This document shows, piece after piece, positions 578 through 52,353 of a DNA stretch of 64,000 nucleotides (its first letter is position 1; every line of letters starts with the position of its first letter). The notes below the pieces were generated by a model that was not told the origin of the DNA, searched no databases, and was given only the letters and a program-made list of their open reading frames with translations. Source of the stretch: a virus. The position numbers and the translations under genes are program-made. The DNA lies in IMG/VR virus record IMGVR_UViG_3300028610_000426, positions 19,101-83,100 of that record; one strand, written 5' to 3'.

Positions 578-3409
578 ATGAGAAAGGATAGGTTTGTGGT
601 AGAGAAGATCGACGGAACTTATATTTCTTCGTCTTTTAGAGGAAACCGCAGAAGCTCACTCATCGTTTCTTATTACACTAAGAACGGTGAACGGCGTTAC
701 AAAGAATACAAAATCCCCGAAGATTTCAAACCCCGATTAGGGTGGGCTTTCCACGGAGAGTCTGAGTGGAAGTCTTTGAACGGCACTCCCGTATACCTTC
801 AGGAATTCAATTCCATTAACGAATATTATGAAGCGGCTCCTTATGGGGATATCCATAATCCCAACAAGTTGTCACCCCTCCACGATATTGCTATCCCTAC
901 CCAGCTTATTGCTGAGGTGTTCCCAAGGAGTGAGCGTTCATTCACATGTCCTTTTATCCGAGTGGGGGTATTAGATATTGAGGTTGATACCATGGGTGGA
1001 TTTGCGAAACCCGACAACCCCTTCCAACCTATCGTAGCCTTGACCTATTACGATGTTGCTAGAGATAAAAAGTATGTTTTCTCAGCACCTCCAGATGGTC
1101 AGTCGGATTATGTTCCACATGAGCCCAACGTGCGGTACTTCAACTGTTCTGGGCCGGATGGAAAACTGAACGAAGCGTTCCTTATTAAATCATTCATCGA
1201 CGTGTTTTCTGGGGAAGGTGGTAAGGACTATCCGGATGTCTTAACAGGGTGGTTCTCATTCGGGTTTGATATCCCATACTTCATCAATCGTATCAAATAT
1301 CTGGCGAAGTACGGTCAAATTGAAGAGAAAATAATGTACAAACTATCTCCCTTCAGAACTATCCGAGAAAAACGGGTTATTGCTGATTCAGGATTGAGGC
1401 ATCAAGATGTTGAAGGTTACACTATTACTGGCGTGGCTCACCTTGATTATATTGAATTGTATAGGAAGTTCCAACCGGGGGGCCGGGAGAGTTTTACATT
1501 AGATTACATTTCCAAGTACGAATTGGGTAAAGAGAAAGTTGACTACCGGGATAAGTATGGTGACCTTGCCACCCTTTACCGTCAGAATTTTCAATTGTTC
1601 GTTGAGTACAACATTTATGACGCCGATCTTGTTAAGATGTTGGATGACAAACTTCAGCTTATCCAACTGGGAGCCACCATTTCTTACATGGCCGGACTGG
1701 GGGATTTTGAACAGGTGTTGGGCACCTTGCGTATCTGGGAAGCTTATCTATATAATATTCTGAACGAACGGAAGATTGCCACACCAACCCGTGAGACTAA
1801 GCGGTGGACTCCTTACCCCGGAGCGTTCGTGAAGGAACCTATCAAGGGGTTGGATGAATGGGTTATCAGCTTTGACGTGGCATCGGAATATCCAACATGT
1901 CTTATCAGCAACAACATTTCCCCGGAACGGAAAATAAACGAAAATGAACTCCCGGAAGCTTTACAGGCATTGTCAGATAATGTAACCGTGGATGGGTTAG
2001 TCAACGGGTTGGTAGATACCTCTATCCTTGAGGAGTACCCGGATTATAATCTATGTGTGGCGTGGCAGGAGGATCAAACTGTAGAAGCTGGCGGCCGAGA
2101 GTATGGTCAATTTTACTACCGGGACGGCGGAACTCTTGGATTCATTCCCGAAGTGGTCAAGGATATCTTTGAACAAAGAAAAACCACTCAAAAAGAGATG
2201 AGAACACTTGAACAGCAACTTGATGATGAGATGACTGGTGGGGGGCATATTGATGAATATCGTTATTTGGAGGATGAAATAGCCGCTAAGGACCAGATAC
2301 AGTATGCTCTCAAGATTCTCCTGAACTCCCTGTACGGAGCCTATGCTAACAAGTTCTTCCCCTATTATGACGTGGCGCTGGCTTCATCCATCACACTGAC
2401 ATCCCAATTTTATATCAAATCAGTGGAGAAGGCTATTAGTGAGTACCTGACACTCGCATTTGGGCCTCTGGAGACGTTTACTGCTGAGGGGGTGCCCGTG
2501 GTACACCCTTATATCAAAATGATTGATACAGACAGCGTGTACGTCCGTCTGGGGACTGTGGTGACTCAGCGGTTCCCTGATGGGGGCTCACAAGAAGAAA
2601 TCGTCCGATTCTTAAATAGACTTAGTGAACAGGTATTATTACCTGTCATTGAAAAGGCATTCCATGATTGTGCTGTAAAGTTGAACTCCAGTGTCAATTA
2701 CATGTCTATGGGCCGAGAGAAAATTTGTGGTGGGGTCATTGCGCTGGCTAAAAAGAAATATGCTTATATGGTGTTGGATGATGAGGGTAAAGATTACACT
2801 AAGAACCCCAAGATTGATCAGACCGGAATTCAGGTGGTACGGTCAGATAGCCCACAAGTTATTCGGGACTGGCTCAAGGAATCACTGCGGATGGCATTCC
2901 TTGAAGACAATGATACACTTATTGATTTTATCAGGGAAAAGAAGAAGGAGTTTTTCACGTTACCGTTTGAGGCCGTGGCATTCCCCAAAGGAGTCAATAC
3001 GTATGATAAATATCGTGATACTAAGATAATAACCGTTCCCGGTCTGGACGGAGAAATGGTCAAAGTGTTGGCAGACAAAGAGCATGATGAACTGAAAGGA
3101 TTGCCTATTCAAGTCCGAGCGTCTATGGTTTATAATCAAGCTGTAAAGAAGTATGGTTTGGAAAATAAATATCCATTCATCGCTGAAGGAGAGAAAATTA
3201 AATTTGCCTACATGATTGAGCCTAATGTTTTACGTTCTAATGTGATCGGTATCAGTACGAAGTTTCCACATGAATGGAAGGATATTATCCAAGTGGATTA
3301 TGGTCTTCAGTGGAAGAAAGCGTTTATCAATCCATTAAAGGATATTCTTGATACAATAGGATGGACTACGGAAAGAGTTGTCACGATTTGGGATATGATA
3401 AATAATTGA
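578..3409 (+). CDS. 43: family B DNA polymerase (T4 gp43-like)
   Basis: This is the replicative DNA polymerase with a 3'-5' proofreading exonuclease, which works with the clamp and clamp loader encoded at 11-13 kb. The exonuclease site shows Asp-Ile-Glu at residues 133-135, and an F-G-F-D-I-P stretch follows about 90 residues later. In the polymerase domain, motif A is D-V-A-S-E-Y-P-T (about residue 432), motif B is K-x-L-L-N-S-L-Y-G (about 575) and motif C is D-T-D-S (about 650). Motif A carries Glu where most family B enzymes have Leu (S-L-Y-P). The 943 residues are close to T4 gp43 (898). No strong ribosome binding site precedes the ATG. A T4-type late promoter lies directly after the stop. 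Confidence 0.95.
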   Translation: MRKDRFVVEKIDGTYISSSFRGNRRSSLIVSYYTKNGERRYKEYKIPEDFKPRLGWAFHGESEWKSLNGTPVYLQEFNSINEYYEAAPYGDIHNPNKLSPLHDIAIPTQLIAEVFPRSERSFTCPFIRVGVLDIEVDTMGGFAKPDNPFQPIVALTYYDVARDKKYVFSAPPDGQSDYVPHEPNVRYFNCSGPDGKLNEAFLIKSFIDVFSGEGGKDYPDVLTGWFSFGFDIPYFINRIKYLAKYGQIEEKIMYKLSPFRTIREKRVIADSGLRHQDVEGYTITGVAHLDYIELYRKFQPGGRESFTLDYISKYELGKEKVDYRDKYGDLATLYRQNFQLFVEYNIYDADLVKMLDDKLQLIQLGATISYMAGLGDFEQVLGTLRIWEAYLYNILNERKIATPTRETKRWTPYPGAFVKEPIKGLDEWVISFDVASEYPTCLISNNISPERKINENELPEALQALSDNVTVDGLVNGLVDTSILEEYPDYNLCVAWQEDQTVEAGGREYGQFYYRDGGTLGFIPEVVKDIFEQRKTTQKEMRTLEQQLDDEMTGGGHIDEYRYLEDEIAAKDQIQYALKILLNSLYGAYANKFFPYYDVALASSITLTSQFYIKSVEKAISEYLTLAFGPLETFTAEGVPVVHPYIKMIDTDSVYVRLGTVVTQRFPDGGSQEEIVRFLNRLSEQVLLPVIEKAFHDCAVKLNSSVNYMSMGREKICGGVIALAKKKYAYMVLDDEGKDYTKNPKIDQTGIQVVRSDSPQVIRDWLKESLRMAFLEDNDTLIDFIREKKKEFFTLPFEAVAFPKGVNTYDKYRDTKIITVPGLDGEMVKVLADKEHDELKGLPIQVRASMVYNQAVKKYGLENKYPFIAEGEKIKFAYMIEPNVLRSNVIGISTKFPHEWKDIIQVDYGLQWKKAFINPLKDILDTIGWTTERVVTIWDMINN

Positions 3410-3438: not shown

Positions 3439-3954
3439 ATGCAATCATCAGAAATGGTTCACTTGGTTCAGGGTATAGATTTTCTGTGTGAATTAGGGGA
3501 TTATCGGGAAATAGAAAACGGGGGAGAGGTAATTGACCTACCCCCAACCAACGTGTTGACTATTATGATGGTGGAAATGATTACAGGAGGGGAGTGGCAA
3601 ACAGTTGATCATATGATAGATGATCTAATGTCTTATTACGATATTGAAACTGCCAGACCTTTTTGGAAAGCACTAGAAGGAACCCAATTTTGTAAAAAGG
3701 ATTATAATAATCCAGTGGTTGGATTTATCAACGGCGTTCCTTTAAAACGGACATCATTGATTAATTATACAAAGAAAATTTTAGAGAAGGTGTTTCAGAG
3801 AAGTATGAAAAGGGGTCTTGATCCGTTAGATGTTGTGCAGGGGCTGGCGTTGGCACTTAATACGGATGTTGAAGACATTATTGATAAAATTAAAAAGATT
3901 GTACATTATTACATCAATAAGATGGATAAAGGAGAAATACGATATGAGCAATAA
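3439..3954 (+). CDS. hypothetical protein
   Basis: This 171-aa protein was not recognised. I chose ATG 3439 because a GCGGGAG ribosome binding site lies 5-6 bases upstream, and because the late promoter at 3410 would start transcripts at or after ATG 3424. Starting at 3424 would add five residues. The C-terminal half is helical and lysine-rich, with alternating Ile and Lys near residue 145. It overlaps the next gene by 11 bases. Confidence 0.75.
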   Translation: MQSSEMVHLVQGIDFLCELGDYREIENGGEVIDLPPTNVLTIMMVEMITGGEWQTVDHMIDDLMSYYDIETARPFWKALEGTQFCKKDYNNPVVGFINGVPLKRTSLINYTKKILEKVFQRSMKRGLDPLDVVQGLALALNTDVEDIIDKIKKIVHYYINKMDKGEIRYEQ

Positions 3955-4267
3955 AACTCCAAAAGAGGTTATGCTGGAAAGCTTCGAAGCAGAGGAATTG
4001 GCCGAGAAGGAAACCATGAATCGATTGGAAGAGGCCAGAGAAACCATTGAAGAGGATAAGGGTAATAAGAATGCCATTGTTCATGATGCTGATGGCAAGA
4101 AGCTGGGGAATCTGGGCAACCAGATCGACTGGGCGGCTTTTGATGATTATGAGGGGCTTGGCCCCACAAAGAAAATCAAAGGCAAGGAGATGTTTGTGGT
4201 GCCCGGAAAACTCTTCACCCACATCCCGGCCGTCAAAGGTGTAAAAACCGTTTATGTGTCCGTGTAA
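3944..4267 (+). CDS. hypothetical acidic protein
   Basis: This 107-aa protein has a Glu/Lys-rich, probably coiled-coil first half (residues 8-45). The second half is more hydrophobic and ends in a short beta-like V-K-T-V-Y-V. The start has an AAAGGAG site 9 bases upstream. It is the last gene before a short transcription unit with its own promoter and terminator. Confidence 0.75.
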   Translation: MSNKTPKEVMLESFEAEELAEKETMNRLEEARETIEEDKGNKNAIVHDADGKKLGNLGNQIDWAAFDDYEGLGPTKKIKGKEMFVVPGKLFTHIPAVKGVKTVYVSV

Positions 4268-4276
4268 AATTTTCAC

Positions 4277-4304
4277 TTGACAACAGTTCAAAAATGATTA
4301 TACT
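4277..4304 (+). promoter_or_regulatory. sigma70-like promoter of the short 4.3-kb transcription unit
   Basis: TTGACA at 4277-4282 and TATACT at 4299-4304 are separated by 16 bases. The transcript would begin near 4311 and end at the terminator at 4430-4463, giving an RNA of about 150 bases. Confidence 0.7.
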
Positions 4305-4364
4305 TGAATTGTAAGTGGTTGAGAGAAACAAATTTATTTTGAGTCAAGTGAAAGGAGGTTATAT

Positions 4365-4373
4365 ATGAGATAA
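4365..4373 (+). other. two-codon minigene AUG-AGA-UAA with a perfect ribosome binding site
   Basis: AAAGGAGG (4351-4358) is followed six bases later by ATG AGA TAA. No longer reading frame on this short transcript has a comparable ribosome binding site. Two-codon minigenes such as the lambda bar minigenes cause peptidyl-tRNA drop-off and tie up a rare tRNA; AGA is a rare arginine codon in many bacteria. The unit could instead be a non-coding RNA that uses the purine tract differently. Confidence 0.5.
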
Positions 4374-4429
4374 ACAAAATAACCTGTTAATATAAAAAAA
4401 TAAGACAATCTAAAAAGAAATGAAAGACC

Positions 4430-4463
4430 AAAAAGGGAGCCTGTACATACAGGCTCCCTTTTT
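4430..4463 (+). terminator. strong intrinsic terminator
   Basis: A perfect 10-bp stem (GGGAGCCTGT, 4435-4444; ACAGGCTCCC, 4449-4458) with a four-base loop is flanked by AAAAA and TTTTT. It closes the 4277-4463 unit just before the next promoter. Confidence 0.9.
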
Positions 4464-4475
4464 GCATGTTTTTAC

Positions 4476-4503
4476 TTGACATTCTCTGAATAAGAGGTAT
4501 ATT
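4476..4503 (+). promoter_or_regulatory. sigma70-like early promoter
   Basis: TTGACA at 4476-4481 and TATATT at 4498-4503 have a 16-base spacer. It lies between the terminator and the gene at 4527 and belongs to the repeated promoter family of this window. Confidence 0.8.
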
Positions 4504-4526: not shown

Positions 4527-5012
4527 ATGACTGACACCGAATATCAAAAGTACGTAGATGAGCTTTGGGTGATGTTGGATAAAGAACTGGTACACGAAAA
4601 GACGGCCATTGGTAAAGCCAAGTTGGTTTTTTTGATATTGGATGGTGTGACCGTCGAAGACCTTATGAGGGCTGGCATTGATCTTGGCCGTGCTCGTACA
4701 CTTATCTTTCAAAACTTCCTTACCAACAAATTCATTCGTCGGGTTGAGCGCCGGGTGTATGAGGTAACCAAAAAAGGTGCGAAAGAATTCAGGAAACCAC
4801 CCCGGAAGCGTGGACGCCCGACCAAGACTATCAAAGTTCCAGCGGGTCTCACGGTATCAACCCACACCAACCTTATGGATGCGCTTGCTGTAATGCGCCC
4901 CGTATTGAAGCGGATAGTAAAGCTTAATCCAACAACAGAACGTGAACCAATTCGATATCAAGCCAGATGTGCGCTTGTTGAAATTAACATGCTTATCGAA
5001 ACACTTCAGTAA
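4527..5012 (+). CDS. putative DNA-binding protein with AT-hook-like motif
   Basis: This 161-aa basic protein has a probable helical/winged-helix-like segment (residues 40-87) followed by R-K-R-G-R-P-T-K (about residues 92-99), which resembles an AT-hook. ATG 4527 follows AAAGGAGG by eight bases; an in-frame GTG at 4518 lies inside the ribosome binding site and is unlikely. It has its own promoter and terminator, so it is a single-gene unit. A role as an early regulator or nucleoid-binding protein is inference. Confidence 0.7.
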   Translation: MTDTEYQKYVDELWVMLDKELVHEKTAIGKAKLVFLILDGVTVEDLMRAGIDLGRARTLIFQNFLTNKFIRRVERRVYEVTKKGAKEFRKPPRKRGRPTKTIKVPAGLTVSTHTNLMDALAVMRPVLKRIVKLNPTTEREPIRYQARCALVEINMLIETLQ

Positions 5013-5172: not shown

Positions 5173-6351
5173 ATGACTGTAACGCCAGAGCCTCACAAAC
5201 GAAATGTTACAAATGGTAACCCATCTTATCAAGGACAGCGGGTTAGCAAGGAGCAACTCCACAAAAGAATATTGAAACTTAGAACTGAGGGATTGTCTTA
5301 TGATAAAATTGCTATTCAGTTAAGAAGTGAAGGTTATCGAATCAGTAAAAATACTGTAAGATATGTTTGTTATGAAGCTTCTGGGGGTAGCCCCGATCCT
5401 AAACACAAATCAACCAAGAAGCAACGGTCTAAGAAAAGTGTGGATAAAGATTGGAAGGATAAAAAGAAACCCCTAAACGTGGATACCACTATTAAATTAG
5501 AGGGACACGACCCCGGAAAATGTCCAGAAGAGCTTTTGAATGAAATCATTGCGAAGCAGAAGAAGGAGGGGATTTTTGATATAGATAAACCCCCTATCAA
5601 AATTACGACTACTCATCCAGTGGGGCTTTGTGCAATTTCTGATCTTCATCTAGGGAGTTCTGGAGTTAATTATGAATATCTGAAAGAAGTTGTCGAACTT
5701 ATTAATGACACACCCAACCTTTTCGTGGCTATTGGCGGAGACCTTATCGACAACTTCATCATTCAGAAATTGAACATTGCCACGGAGCAACGTGAGTTCA
5801 AGGTTGAAATGCAATACAAGTTTGTTGCTTATATTTTGGATATGTTGGCAGGGCGTGTGCTGTGGATGATTCGTGGTAACCATGAGGCATGGACAGAGCG
5901 CTATGCATTCGTGGACCAAATGGCAAAGTTCGCCACATGGAAGAATCTTCCGTATTACAAGGACGGGGGTATCGTCAAACTGGACATCAACGGAATTCGA
6001 TACAAGGTTCACCACCGTCATAAGTTCTGGGGGATGTCTAAACTGAATAGGCACAATGCCGGGAAGCGGATGTATGATTTTGGACAAGAGCCTTATGACA
6101 TTGGTATTCTTGAACATTTCCATGAAGGGAGCATAGAGAGCTTCCATAGGCATGATGAAAAGCGTATCTCTATCAATAGTGCTACCTTCAAAGAGAAAGA
6201 CCCATATGCTGAATCTTTGGGATACTATCACACGGGTATTGAAATTCCTGTAGCAATAATGTATCCTAATCAGAAGAAATTAGCTGTCATTGATGACATG
6301 GACACGGCCGCACTTACTTTAAGGGCAATGGCGGAAATGGAATGGAATTAA
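5173..6351 (+). CDS. metallophosphoesterase with N-terminal helix-turn-helix
   Basis: This 392-aa protein joins two domains. Residues about 24-66 form a resolvase-like helix-turn-helix (an E-G-L-S-Y-D-K-I-A-I-Q-L stretch followed by I-S-K-N-T-V-R). A lysine-rich linker leads to a calcineurin-like phosphoesterase from about residue 150. Its metal motifs are S-D-L-H-L-G, G-G-D-L-I-D-N, R-G-N-H-E, H-H-R-H-K and H-F-H-E, a complete set. It probably hydrolyses phosphodiester bonds in nucleic acid and is brought to DNA by the HTH, but the substrate is unknown. ATG 5173 is set by AGGAGGT five bases upstream. It lies between the polymerase and primase genes. Confidence 0.85.
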   Translation: MTVTPEPHKRNVTNGNPSYQGQRVSKEQLHKRILKLRTEGLSYDKIAIQLRSEGYRISKNTVRYVCYEASGGSPDPKHKSTKKQRSKKSVDKDWKDKKKPLNVDTTIKLEGHDPGKCPEELLNEIIAKQKKEGIFDIDKPPIKITTTHPVGLCAISDLHLGSSGVNYEYLKEVVELINDTPNLFVAIGGDLIDNFIIQKLNIATEQREFKVEMQYKFVAYILDMLAGRVLWMIRGNHEAWTERYAFVDQMAKFATWKNLPYYKDGGIVKLDINGIRYKVHHRHKFWGMSKLNRHNAGKRMYDFGQEPYDIGILEHFHEGSIESFHRHDEKRISINSATFKEKDPYAESLGYYHTGIEIPVAIMYPNQKKLAVIDDMDTAALTLRAMAEMEWN

Positions 6352-6390: not shown

Positions 6391-6431
6391 TATAAATAAT
6401 TTAAAAGGAGGCTGTGAAATATCTCACAGCC
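6391..6431 (+). promoter_or_regulatory. T4-type late promoter with a 5'-end hairpin
   Basis: TATAAATA at 6391-6398 resembles the T4 late -10 box. Transcripts would begin near 6404 and immediately contain an 8-bp hairpin (GGCTGTGA 6410-6417, TCACAGCC 6424-6431), which may protect the RNA 5' end. The gene at 6451 follows with its own ribosome binding site. Confidence 0.45.
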
Positions 6432-6450
6432 TATCACAAGGAGGCGTATT

Positions 6451-6579
6451 ATGTTAGAATTTCTCACAATGATGTCAGTCATCGCAATGATTTTTTGTGC
6501 GGCCACAGCATTCGTAGCGTTTATCTCCGGGGTGCTACTTAAAGTCGCACGAAAGATAGGGGAGATTATTAAGACATAA
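6451..6579 (+). CDS. small single-pass membrane protein
   Basis: This 42-aa protein is mostly one hydrophobic segment (about residues 5-31) followed by a short basic tail with several Lys/Arg residues. AAGGAGG lies seven to eight bases before the ATG. It would be made behind the putative late promoter at 6391. Function is unknown. Confidence 0.7.
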   Translation: MLEFLTMMSVIAMIFCAATAFVAFISGVLLKVARKIGEIIKT

Positions 6580-19730: not shown

Positions 19731-22346
19731 ATGTTTTTTGACAACCCGTTCTCTGAACAAATCTGGCGGGAAAACTACCAGTACGGCAATGAAACGATTG
19801 AAGATACAATGGCACGTCTGGCCAATACCATTATGGCCGGGGAAGATGGGGTGTATAGAGATCAACTCTATCTTGCACTTATCAACCGCCGCATATCCTT
19901 TGGCGGTCGTATCGTGGCTAATGTAGGAACCCATTATAAAAACACCTCTAACTTTAATTGTTACGGAGCCCAACGTGCTATTAAGCCTGTGGACTCTATT
20001 GCGAATATCTACCAAGATTTGACCAATGCCGCTCACATCCTGAAGACGGAGGGTGGAATTGGGTTCGATTTTTCTCATCTCCGGCCACAAGGAACTTTCA
20101 TTAAAGGTATTGGAGTGGGCACCCCCGGCGTAACCAAATTCATGGAACTGTATGATAAGTCATCTGAGATAATGACTCAAGGTCATCCCGGCGGAGAGTA
20201 CACACAGGTTCCTTCAGATGTGAACCCGAAGCGCCGGGTACGCAAGGGTGCCATGATGGGGATGCTACATATTTCTCATCCGGAGATACTTCGGTTTATT
20301 AAAGCCAAAAACATTCCGAATGTTCTGACCAAATTCAACATGTCTGTCATCGTGACAGATAAGTTTATGAAGGCCCTGTCCAAAAATGCTGACTGGGAGC
20401 TTTGGTTTCCGGATATTAATTGGAAAGATTATGACAAGCACTGGAACGGTGATTTTGATTTATGGGAGAGTAATGACTTCCCCCGTAAGGTCTATGAGAC
20501 CATCCCGGCCCGTGACCTTTGGGACATTCTCATGGAGTCCATGTACAAGAGGAATGAACCCGGTATCTGGTTCAAGGATGCCGCCAACCGATATAACAAC
20601 CTCTGGTATCACGGCAAGGTCAGCACTACAAATCCCTGTGGGGAGATAGGGATGATTGGTGACGCCGGACATGCCAAAGGGCTGGATCATATTGGTGACA
20701 TTTGCAATCTTGGTCACCACAACATGACTCAGTATGTTTCGGTAGACGAAGAAAGCGGTTACCCTAAATTTGATATGGAGTTATTCAGACAGGACAACTC
20801 CATTTTGGTCCGGGCTTTGGATAACCTTATTGATATCTCCGGGTATCCTTTAGAGGGGTTAAAGAACGCCGCCTTACTCCGCCGGAAAATCGGGGTAGGG
20901 GTTTTGGGTTATGGTTCTATGCTCTACATGTTAGGACTCAGGTACGGTTCACAGGACGCAAACACATTTACCACAATGCTTCTTACTTACAAAAGCCGCA
21001 ATGAATATAAAATTTCGGCGGGTTTGGCTACAGAAAAAGGAGCTTTTCCGCTTTGTGATATGGCTAAGATATGGAAAGAAGGTTATCTAGCCAACGGACC
21101 TCTTGCCAATGATGTCTTTATAGAAGAATGGAAACGTCAAGGTATATTCAAAAATGGACTTAGGAATGCCCAACTCTCCACTTGTGCGCCTACTGGGAAT
21201 ACTGGCGTTTTCATGGGGCTGGTCTCCGGGGGTATGGAGCCTGTCTTCGAACAAGAATATTATCGTTGGGTCATTGAGACACACCGCTGGAAATGGTATG
21301 CAAAAAAGTATAAACTGGATTTCCCAGACTTCGTGAACGGAGATTACAGCCCGACCAAGAGTTTCAAGAAGGTCAAGCTTGGGGATGAGGAAGTTCTGAT
21401 GACTGAGGATGGGAACTTCATGCTGGACCCCAATCACGGATTCAGGGAGAGAATCTACTGTGAAGACTACGGGTATGCATGGGCCAAGAAGAACTTACCC
21501 AACTTCGAAGAATTGAAGGAGAGGGGTATTTTCGTGTCTGCCCATGAACTGGATGTGTCTGAACACCTCTCACCATTTATTATTTTCTCTCAGTATGTAG
21601 ACAATTCTGTGTCCAAGACGGTAAACCTTCACAGGGATTACCCTCTGGATGATTACAAGGGCCTGTGGGAACGTTTGTGGGTTGAAGGTGTCCGTGGTAT
21701 TACCACATATAGAGAGGGCACCACAGCGGCTGTGTTGGAGACTAAAGCCCAATCTGAAGAGCGTACCAAGTCTGCCAAGAAGCAGATACGGGAATTTCTT
21801 AAGAATTTTGATGGTCATGAGAACGGAGAGGTTTTCAAAGAGGTTTCTTTACCAGATGAATATCCGGCCCGTGGTTTTATCATCAAGTCAGAAGGACGGA
21901 AATGGTATCTCCATATCTGTTTTAAGGATAAGCAAATGACAGCGCCTTTTGCAATCTTCGCTTCTACCAATTCACGTGAGAAGAATGTGTGGGCAGAAGA
22001 GGCTGTGGAAGTCATGGAAACGCTGGCCCGGTCCCATGGAATTCCAGAGGAACGGATTGTAGAGACACAAGAGAAAGCGGCCGTTCAATCAAACGTGGAC
22101 AAGATATGCCGGATGGTTGGACTCTTATGTCGTCATAATGTTCCGATCATTGAAACTATCAAGGCACTGGATACGGTGAACGTTGGTGTGGGGTCTTTCG
22201 TTTATCATATCAAGAAGTTCCTCATGCGGTTTGTACAAGATGAGAATCTACAGGAGTTCCTTGGCGCTTGCCCGGAGTGTGGTGGTAAACTGAGGATGGC
22301 TGAAGGGTGTATCAACTGTGTAGATTGTGGTCATTCGAAATGTTAA
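19731..22346 (+). CDS. nrdJ: adenosylcobalamin-dependent (class II) ribonucleotide reductase
   Basis: This 871-aa enzyme reduces ribonucleotides to deoxyribonucleotides using a B12-generated thiyl radical, so it needs no oxygen and no beta subunit. Key motifs are N-F-N-C-Y-G (first redox Cys, about residue 67), N-P-C-G-E-I (radical site, about 303), S-T-C-A-P-T-G-N-T-G (about 483), and a C-terminal C-P-E-C-G...E-G-C-x-x-C-x-x-C-G-x-S-K-C tail typical of NrdJ. The ribosome binding site is CAGGAG. The host must supply or take up cobalamin. It works with ThyX at 24.6 kb to provide precursors. Confidence 0.95.
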   Translation: MFFDNPFSEQIWRENYQYGNETIEDTMARLANTIMAGEDGVYRDQLYLALINRRISFGGRIVANVGTHYKNTSNFNCYGAQRAIKPVDSIANIYQDLTNAAHILKTEGGIGFDFSHLRPQGTFIKGIGVGTPGVTKFMELYDKSSEIMTQGHPGGEYTQVPSDVNPKRRVRKGAMMGMLHISHPEILRFIKAKNIPNVLTKFNMSVIVTDKFMKALSKNADWELWFPDINWKDYDKHWNGDFDLWESNDFPRKVYETIPARDLWDILMESMYKRNEPGIWFKDAANRYNNLWYHGKVSTTNPCGEIGMIGDAGHAKGLDHIGDICNLGHHNMTQYVSVDEESGYPKFDMELFRQDNSILVRALDNLIDISGYPLEGLKNAALLRRKIGVGVLGYGSMLYMLGLRYGSQDANTFTTMLLTYKSRNEYKISAGLATEKGAFPLCDMAKIWKEGYLANGPLANDVFIEEWKRQGIFKNGLRNAQLSTCAPTGNTGVFMGLVSGGMEPVFEQEYYRWVIETHRWKWYAKKYKLDFPDFVNGDYSPTKSFKKVKLGDEEVLMTEDGNFMLDPNHGFRERIYCEDYGYAWAKKNLPNFEELKERGIFVSAHELDVSEHLSPFIIFSQYVDNSVSKTVNLHRDYPLDDYKGLWERLWVEGVRGITTYREGTTAAVLETKAQSEERTKSAKKQIREFLKNFDGHENGEVFKEVSLPDEYPARGFIIKSEGRKWYLHICFKDKQMTAPFAIFASTNSREKNVWAEEAVEVMETLARSHGIPEERIVETQEKAAVQSNVDKICRMVGLLCRHNVPIIETIKALDTVNVGVGSFVYHIKKFLMRFVQDENLQEFLGACPECGGKLRMAEGCINCVDCGHSKC

Positions 22347-22354
22347 TAAAAAGC

Positions 22355-22422
22355 TTGACATGTCGAAAAAATAGGTTATATTAGATAGCAATGATAGACG
22401 TGTACATCTAATCGACATGTCA
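22355..22422 (+). promoter_or_regulatory. promoter flanked by paired GACATGTC operators
   Basis: TTGACA (22355-22360) and TATATT (22377-22382) form a family promoter. The -35 region overlaps TGACATGTCG (22357-22366). Its exact inverted copy CGACATGTCA lies at 22413-22422, just before the ribosome binding site of the 22441 gene. Each copy contains the 8-bp palindrome GACATGTC. Two identical operators of this kind suggest a dimeric repressor, possibly looping. Confidence 0.65.
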
Positions 22423-22440
22423 TAACAAAAGGAGCGTGGA

Positions 22441-22680
22441 ATGAAACAAGAGAAGCGCATACAAAAAAAGAACCGCAAACAGGCGGCCACGGAAAAATCA
22501 AAGAAGGCCACTAAACCCAAAATCATTGCTGGTACGGGGTACGTTAAACCAGAAGATCGCCCCATTTGTCAGAACTGTGATCATCACAGGAACAAACCGT
22601 CAAGGTGTCGATTACACGGCACTTATGTAGAGCGTAAAGGATCATGTTTAGAAGGTTTCACAAAGGAGCGTATGGCATGA
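22441..22680 (+). CDS. basic zinc-finger-like protein
   Basis: This 79-aa protein has a Lys/Arg-rich N-terminal third and then C-Q-N-C-D-H-H...C-R-L-H...C near residues 44-72, consistent with one zinc site. It is the first gene behind the operator-flanked promoter and could be a regulator, but no family was recognised. Confidence 0.7.
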   Translation: MKQEKRIQKKNRKQAATEKSKKATKPKIIAGTGYVKPEDRPICQNCDHHRNKPSRCRLHGTYVERKGSCLEGFTKERMA

Positions 22681-28044: not shown

Positions 28045-28080
28045 GCCCCCGATAGGAATGGCCTATCGGGGGCATTTTTT
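28045..28080 (+). terminator. strong intrinsic terminator
   Basis: GCCCCCGATAGG (28045-28056) pairs perfectly with CCTATCGGGGGC (28062-28073), loop AATGG, followed by ATTTTTT. It ends the DHH phosphoesterase transcript. Confidence 0.92.
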
Positions 28081-28107
28081 GACCTAAAATAAATGTAGGT
28101 ATTTTAC

Positions 28108-28136
28108 TTGACATCACTGCTTAAATTGGTTATATT
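28108..28136 (+). promoter_or_regulatory. early promoter cassette
   Basis: TTGACA (28108) and TATATT (28131) are 17 bases apart. The sequence from the -10 box to the start codon is almost identical to that at 48669-48707, including the double ribosome binding site GTGGAGGTAGATGAAAGGAG. Confidence 0.85.
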
Positions 28137-52211: not shown

Positions 52212-52353
52212 AGAAATTTGTAGTAGTTGTTATTATGAAGAGATTTGTGATGACAAGACAAGTAAAAGACCAGAGAAATATGCTGACAGGGTTGGAGTAT
52301 ATGGTCCTGTGATAGCGTGTACAAAATATAAAAGGAGGTTATCAAGTGAGTAA
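52204..52353 (+). CDS. small zinc-binding protein
   Basis: This 49-aa protein starts at GTG 52204 seven bases after AGGAGG. It has C-S-S-C near residue 6, Cys at 15 and Cys at 39. Overlaps both neighbours by eight bases. Confidence 0.6.
   Translation: MAKEICSSCYYEEICDDKTSKRPEKYADRVGVYGPVIACTKYKRRLSSE

What the first reader, a model, noticed from the sequence alone, without database searches (positions are those of the whole stretch)
4277..4463. Stand-alone minigene unit: promoter, perfect RBS, AUG-AGA-UAA, terminator
A complete short transcription unit contains an ideal AAAGGAGG site followed only by a two-codon frame. Two-codon minigenes (lambda bar type) and AGA minigenes can sequester tRNA through peptidyl-tRNA drop-off and inhibit host translation. 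I know of few phage cases where such a frame has its own promoter and terminator. A small regulatory RNA is the alternative.
Basis: partly seen in the sequence, partly recalled or inferred. Interest (0 to 1): 0.7.

Follow-up and report, generated by a model that had tools for sequence, protein, structure and literature searches.

The report
Two-codon gene with own promoter
A bacterial virus carries a complete small gene control unit (start signal, ribosome landing site, stop signal for transcription) whose reading frame is only two codons long; it is a real unit, but whether it jams translation, is a small RNA, or is the shell of a lost gene is not settled.

Summary
Window 4277-4464 holds an 11/12 sigma-70-type promoter, AAAGGAGG six bases before ATG-AGA-TAA, and a 17-bp perfect intrinsic terminator, between gene 3944-4267 and the next promoter at 4476. 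It is beyond chance: a strong SD plus ATG arose in 26 of 20,000 local shuffles, an SD-led two-codon frame in 6 of 200 genome shuffles. One other promoter, 22355, has the same design before a 79-codon frame (2 of 43 promoter-like sites; 0.02 expected). The unit thus looks built for translation. The host-tRNA-depletion reading is untested and weakened: AGA is a common Arg codon of this phage, which encodes tRNA-Arg(UCU). No close relative was found, so the decisive conservation test could not be run. In viral contigs, SD-ATGAGATAA outside long frames is often followed by a terminator (5 of 12, against 1 of 20 for an AAG control). Best guess: a functional two-codon minigene RNA (0.35); close rivals are a gutted gene cassette and a small RNA.

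The parts
4277..4304 (+). Promoter TTGACA-16-TATACT, 11 of 12; start of the RNA inferred near 4311
   Evidence: Scan. The -35 context (A)CTTGACA is shared with other promoters of the phage.
4271..4281 (+). 5' arm of an 11-nt perfect inverted repeat, covering most of the -35 box (TTTCACTTGAC)
   Evidence: 13 of 5,000 shuffles of 4268-4374 have an equally long perfect inverted repeat. 2 of 43 promoter-like sites show this design, 0.02 expected.
4343..4353 (+). 3' arm of the inverted repeat (GTCAAGTGAAA), running into the SD; only RNA read through from upstream contains both arms
   Evidence: Predicted pairing probability of the stem in read-through RNA 0.96-0.97.
4283..4312 (+). Inner 9-bp hairpin around the -10 box, formed only in read-through RNA (or a DNA dyad)
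   Evidence: Fold of 4264-4356: z -2.62, 2 of 200 shuffles as good.
4351..4358 (+). Shine-Dalgarno sequence AAAGGAGG
4356..4385 (+). Small hairpin (AGGTTAT / ATAACCT, 16-nt loop) that holds the 3' half of the SD; the AUG is in the loop
   Evidence: Mean unpaired probability of the SD 0.34, within the range of the 33 other starts listed (0.01-0.84).
4365..4373 (+). Two-codon frame ATG AGA TAA
4429..4464 (+). Intrinsic terminator, 17-bp perfect stem, T-rich tail on the + strand
3944..4267 (+). Upstream gene, 107 aa, unknown; no terminator between it and the unit, so its transcripts can read through the unit
4476..4503 (+). Separate promoter of the next gene, 11 of 12
4527..5012 (+). Downstream gene, 161 aa, no family match; own promoter and own AAAGGAGG
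   Evidence: Single-sequence model of low confidence, mean pLDDT 60, not used further.

Best explanation
The unit makes an RNA of about 155 nt on which ribosomes load at the strong SD, read AUG-AGA and stop at UAA: an active two-codon minigene. Most likely each round ends either in normal termination or in drop-off of fMet-Arg-tRNA(UCU), so that the RNA works as a sink for initiating ribosomes or for one tRNA, or is itself stabilised by the ribosome sitting on it. The promoter is placed between the two arms of a stem, so RNA that starts here lacks the stem, while RNA read through from the upstream genes carries it against the SD. Shown: the parts, their rarity, and the shared design with promoter 22355. 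Inferred: transcription, translation, drop-off and every effect on host or phage.
For: Intact, near-consensus parts throughout; the SD-ATG is not chance (26 of 20,000). The stem design recurs before an open frame of 79 codons at 22441 and in no other of 43 promoter-like sites, which ties the unit to translation. No other SD-led frame lies on the RNA. Viral SD-ATGAGATAA sites outside frames of 100 or more codons: 5 of 12 have a terminator within 130 nt, against 1 of 20 for ATGAAGTAA and 0 of 14 in cellular genomes (Fisher 0.018 against AAG, 0.003 against both). Two-codon frames behind an SD are retained through sequence change in one other phage group, near rtcB: ATG AAG TAA, ATG AAG TGA, ATG AAC TAA. 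Two codons, strong SD and UAA are the reported conditions for minigene toxicity (PMC8708949, passages).
Against: No conservation evidence for this unit: no relatives found. Phage AGA use and its own tRNA-Arg(UCU) argue against an AGA trap; no Pth found in the record. SD half-folded in a hairpin. In long read-through RNA the GGAGG core is predicted more open, not less (0.58-0.66 against 0.25), so the stem does not clearly switch the SD off. The IMG/VR association is small: L011 and L013 are identical, so 5 of 11 distinct, against 1 of 17 once four near-identical AAG loci are merged (one-sided p 0.022, computed by hand). None of the five has a promoter scoring 10 or more upstream. AGA sites are no commoner than AAG overall (18 against 51). 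The axe-txe minigene with the same 'toxic' features was not toxic when induced (PMC8708949).
Confidence: 0.35

Rival explanations
1. A gutted gene cassette: a moron or homing-endonuclease-like unit with its own promoter, read-through stem, RBS and terminator whose coding part was deleted; ATG-AGA-TAA is what remains and has no function.
For: Promoter-RBS-terminator cassettes around single phage genes are common (recalled). T4-type phages use stems next to the RBS, formed only in read-through RNA, for homing endonuclease genes; in another, seg43 of Aeromonas phage 25, the hairpin abuts but does not cover the RBS (PMC2988022, passages read). The DNA between SD and terminator is AT-rich and uninformative (22.7% G+C for 4354-4428). 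Dropping one A would give a nine-codon frame, MSKQNNLLI (read by eye).
Against: No part of the control region shows decay. Similarity of the start to the gene at 52346 is not significant (665 of 1,000 shuffles as good), so no parent gene was found. Even with the A dropped the frame ends after nine codons.
Confidence: 0.3
2. A small regulatory RNA (or an operon 3' end with an internal promoter) for which the SD is incidental or only a ribosome docking site; it acts by pairing or by protein binding.
For: About 155 nt, own promoter and terminator, placed directly 3' of the upstream gene; the whole RNA folds better than shuffles, z -4.7.
Against: The excess stability is the terminator: without it z is 0.01. 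No Rfam family at the gathering score; hits at lax E-values are far below their thresholds. No perfect antisense match longer than 11 nt elsewhere in the record, the best being 15 nt at 93% (E of 1.8). A perfect SD at a good distance from ATG is unexplained.
Confidence: 0.2
3. A leader in cis: ribosomes on the two-codon frame affect the terminator and so read-through into gene 4527, or stabilise the message, as reported for leader minigenes.
For: Order promoter, minigene, hairpin, gene; leader minigenes that act in cis are reported (PMC8708949). In Lacusarx-like phages a two-codon frame and a hairpin precede rtcB or tadA.
Against: Gene 4527 has its own 11/12 promoter, starting 12 bases past the terminator, and its own SD. 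No good antiterminator pairing was seen in the folds.
Confidence: 0.15

Closest known systems
Phage lambda bar minigenes (ATG-ATA-TAA)
   Same: Two-codon phage frame, UAA stop, candidate for peptidyl-tRNA drop-off (bar described in PMC8012679, passages).
   Different: AGA instead of AUA; perfect SD; own promoter and terminator; no toxicity or drop-off data.
Leader minigenes acting in cis (axe-txe, ler, LEE4, ycbK)
   Same: SD-led frame of a few codons (two in axe-txe, ler and ycbK) in a leader RNA (PMC8708949).
   Different: Here a strong terminator follows and the next gene has its own promoter.
T4-type RBS control by stems present only in read-through RNA (I-TevI, segB, mobE; also soc, e); seg43 of Aeromonas phage 25
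   Same: Promoter placed so that its RNA lacks one arm of the stem (PMC2988022).
   Different: The stem abuts the SD rather than covering it, as described for seg43(25); the frame is two codons.
Lacusarx-like phages, two-codon frame before rtcB/tadA
   Same: SD, two-codon frame, then a hairpin.
   Different: AAG or AAC codon, hairpin without T run, followed by a gene; no homology to this phage found.

Membership tests
lambda bar-type toxic minigene | Start codon, one further sense codon, stop, with a usable SD | tested here: met
lambda bar-type toxic minigene | AUA as the last sense codon, as in bar | tested here: not met
   AGA. Other codons are also reported as toxic, so this bars membership in bar itself, not the mode of action.
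lambda bar-type toxic minigene | Accumulation of peptidyl-tRNA and growth inhibition in Pth-limited cells | not testable with these tools
   Needs a bench test.
lambda bar-type toxic minigene | Last codon read by a scarce tRNA | tested here: inconclusive
   Host unknown; in the phage AGA is common and its tRNA is encoded.
T4-type read-through RBS stem | Stem formed only by RNA started upstream; internal promoter between the arms | tested here: met
   (prediction only).
T4-type read-through RBS stem | SD hidden inside that stem | tested here: not met
   The stem ends at the AAA of AAAGGAGG (one further G in the fold); GGAGG is not less accessible in long read-through RNA.
Known small RNA family (Rfam 15) | Match at the gathering score | tested here: not met
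   0 matches in the window.
Leader attenuator of gene 4527 | Downstream gene depends on read-through of the terminator | tested here: inconclusive
   A separate strong promoter at 4476 makes it unlikely; expression not testable here.

The most novel reading that the evidence does not exclude
Phages of unrelated lineages keep free-standing or operon-end units of the form SD, AUG-AGA-UAA, terminator, which act in trans as ribosome or tRNA-Arg sinks timed by where the transcript starts; this phage has the autonomous form, balanced by its own tRNA-Arg(UCU) and permuted tmRNA.
Probability: 0.13. Interest if true: 0.75.

Novelty: new variant of a known kind. Interest (0 to 1): 0.42.

Why it matters
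Minigene toxicity has been studied mostly with lambda bar and synthetic constructs (recalled; reviews); why phages keep such frames is open. A compact natural unit with its own promoter, RBS and terminator, and a ready control (one start-codon change), would let that be tested directly. Even as a relic it would show a T4-like read-through stem used in a phage whose polymerase is only about a third identical to its best named matches.

Tried and rejected
Relatives: exact 23-mer of the unit, DNA similarity in phages and plasmids (none), proteins 578-3409, 4527-5012, 5173-6351 and 19731-22346 in IMG/VR (only relatives at 31-41% identity, or none), promoter-family pattern. The ORFs of L003 around its polymerase were listed; no comparable intergenic unit could be judged at that distance.

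Rejected: sequencing indel of a longer gene (dropping one A gives only nine codons); paralogy with the start at 52346; SD and ATG as pure chance; a longer frame that would use the same ATG.

The AAG scan meant as a control turned out to contain a retained two-codon frame before rtcB, so it is not a clean negative. My terminator test was first run (4 of 18 against 1 of 51, p 0.015); the detector was then changed because it missed a visible terminator in L012, giving 5 of 12 against 1 of 20 outside long frames. DNA similarity searches for six AGA loci (L017, L025, L016, L020, L012, L011) gave no named record that covers the minigene; L016 matched 35 records, mostly Bacteroides phages, and no listed place covers its minigene. 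The downstream-gene structure model was too weak to use.

Full report
What is there. The window is bases 19101-83100 of an 83.1-kb virus record. By content it is a phage with family-B DNA polymerase, clamp loader and RecA-like protein, and, before the window, 24 tRNA genes and a permuted tmRNA. Between gene 3944-4267 and gene 4527-5012 lies the unit: promoter 4277-4304 (11 of 12), SD AAAGGAGG 4351-4358, ATG AGA TAA 4365-4373, terminator 4429-4464 with a 17-bp perfect stem. The next promoter (4476, 11 of 12) begins 12 bases after the stem.

Is it more than chance? AAAGGAGG followed by ATG at 4-9 bases occurs ten times in the record, all on the + strand, against 0.54 in shuffles; nine of them start frames of 54-161 codons and one is this unit. 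Shuffling the 259-base intergenic stretch produced such a pair in 26 of 20,000. A strong SD before a two-codon frame turned up in 6 of 200 shuffles of the record. In the 76 loci held (0.69 Mb, this record's own stretch L004 included), no SD-led two-codon frame was found beyond those the loci had been picked for, and the 18 whole AGA records held only the one each was picked for. So the promoter, SD and terminator are not accidental; that the frame is two codons rather than, say, six is less constrained.

TTTCACTTGAC (4271-4281, covering most of the -35 box) is the perfect reverse complement of GTCAAGTGAAA (4343-4353), which runs into the SD. The inferred RNA start lies between the arms. Only RNA read through from upstream can form the stem (pairing probability 0.96-0.97), with a second 9-bp hairpin inside. 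Among 43 promoter-like sites, only two have an 11-base match between the -35 region and the stretch 30-110 bases downstream: this one and 22355, where the second arm again lies just before the SD, of a 79-codon frame; 0.02 were expected and 0 of 200 shuffled sets had two. The arm sequences differ between the two sites. This resembles control of I-TevI and other T4 genes, where a stem present only in read-through RNA blocks the RBS, and more closely seg43 of phage 25, where the stem abuts the RBS (PMC2988022, passages). But the predicted opening of GGAGG does not fall in long read-through RNA (0.58-0.66 against 0.25 in RNA from the promoter), and the 22355 arm contains the palindrome GACATGTC, so DNA operators remain possible.

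Minigene or not. For: the RNA has no other SD-led frame; length, SD and stop fit the reported conditions for toxic minigenes (PMC8708949, passages). Against the tRNA-trap form: the phage uses AGA at 12.6 per 1000 codons, 249 of 1,066 Arg codons in 104 crude gene calls, and encodes tRNA-Arg(UCU); neither Pth nor SmpB was found in the record, which may be a fragment. The SD is partly paired (mean unpaired 0.34), though 7 of the 33 other starts listed rank lower.

Related sequences. Instead I scanned IMG/VR for AAAGGAGG-N4-8-ATGAGATAA (18 loci) and the AAG version as control (51 loci). Outside frames of 100 or more codons, 5 of 12 AGA loci (L012, L016, L017, L020, L025) have a terminator within 130 bases, against 1 of 20 AAG loci (Fisher 0.018) and 0 of 14 in a cellular set with AAA, AGA, GAA or GGA (both controls together 0.003). 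L011 and L013 are identical, and four AAG loci are near-identical, so the effective numbers are 5 of 11 and 1 of 17. None of the five has a promoter of 10 or more upstream. This is suggestive, not proof.

A by-product. Seven AAG loci belong to a group related to Erythrobacter phage XM05 and Sphingobium phage Lacusarx, where SD, ATG AAG TAA and a hairpin lie before rtcB. XM05 has ATG AAG TGA and Lacusarx ATG AAC TAA at the same place; vB_EliS-L02 lacks the stretch. In Lacusarx the SD lies in a 10-bp hairpin (z -6.0). So a two-codon frame with an SD is present in six of six distinct sequences that have the stretch, through changes of codon and stop, with the caution that four of the six were found by the exact AAG pattern.

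Conclusion. I take the unit as real and built for ribosome loading, and put an active two-codon minigene first (0.35), a gutted cassette second (0.30), a small RNA third (0.20) and a cis leader fourth (0.15). Open-licence literature searches listed no paper that by its title or abstract start deals with a phage minigene with its own promoter and terminator; lambda bar itself was seen only through a review. Most subscription papers are not in that library.

Noticed in passing
L004:2439-2690 (record bases before the window): Permuted (two-piece) tmRNA, Rfam RF04321 at 83.9 bits, ARAGORN tag ANAPVEMAA, among 24 tRNA genes; no SmpB in the record. Permuted tmRNAs in phages are reported as rare and mostly aquatic (PMC9004378, passages).
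   Followed up: partly
L048:4383-4592; L195 (Erythrobacter phage XM05), L197 (Sphingobium phage Lacusarx): Two-codon frame with SD and hairpin before rtcB or tadA, as AAG-TAA, AAG-TGA and AAC-TAA; in Lacusarx the SD sits in a 10-bp hairpin.
   Followed up: partly
window 22355-22441: Promoter whose -35 region TGACATGTCGA is inverted just before the SD of a 79-codon frame; same design as 4277.
   Followed up: partly
window 28108, 48646, 49467, 56382, 56978, 58606: Promoter family with a shared tail: TTGACA, 16-17 nt, TATATT followed by about ATAGRTGGAGGTA. A pattern of it was not found in IMG/VR.
   Followed up: partly
window 6404-6451: Two SDs in a row before the frame at 6451; the first lies in a hairpin AGGCTGTGA / TCACAGCCT.
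   Followed up: no
window 28045-28108: The only other strong + strand terminator of the window is also followed closely by a phage promoter, as at 4429-4476.
   Followed up: no
L004:11711-11740: AAAAGGAGG shortly before the tRNA-His gene that leads no gene-length frame.
   Followed up: no
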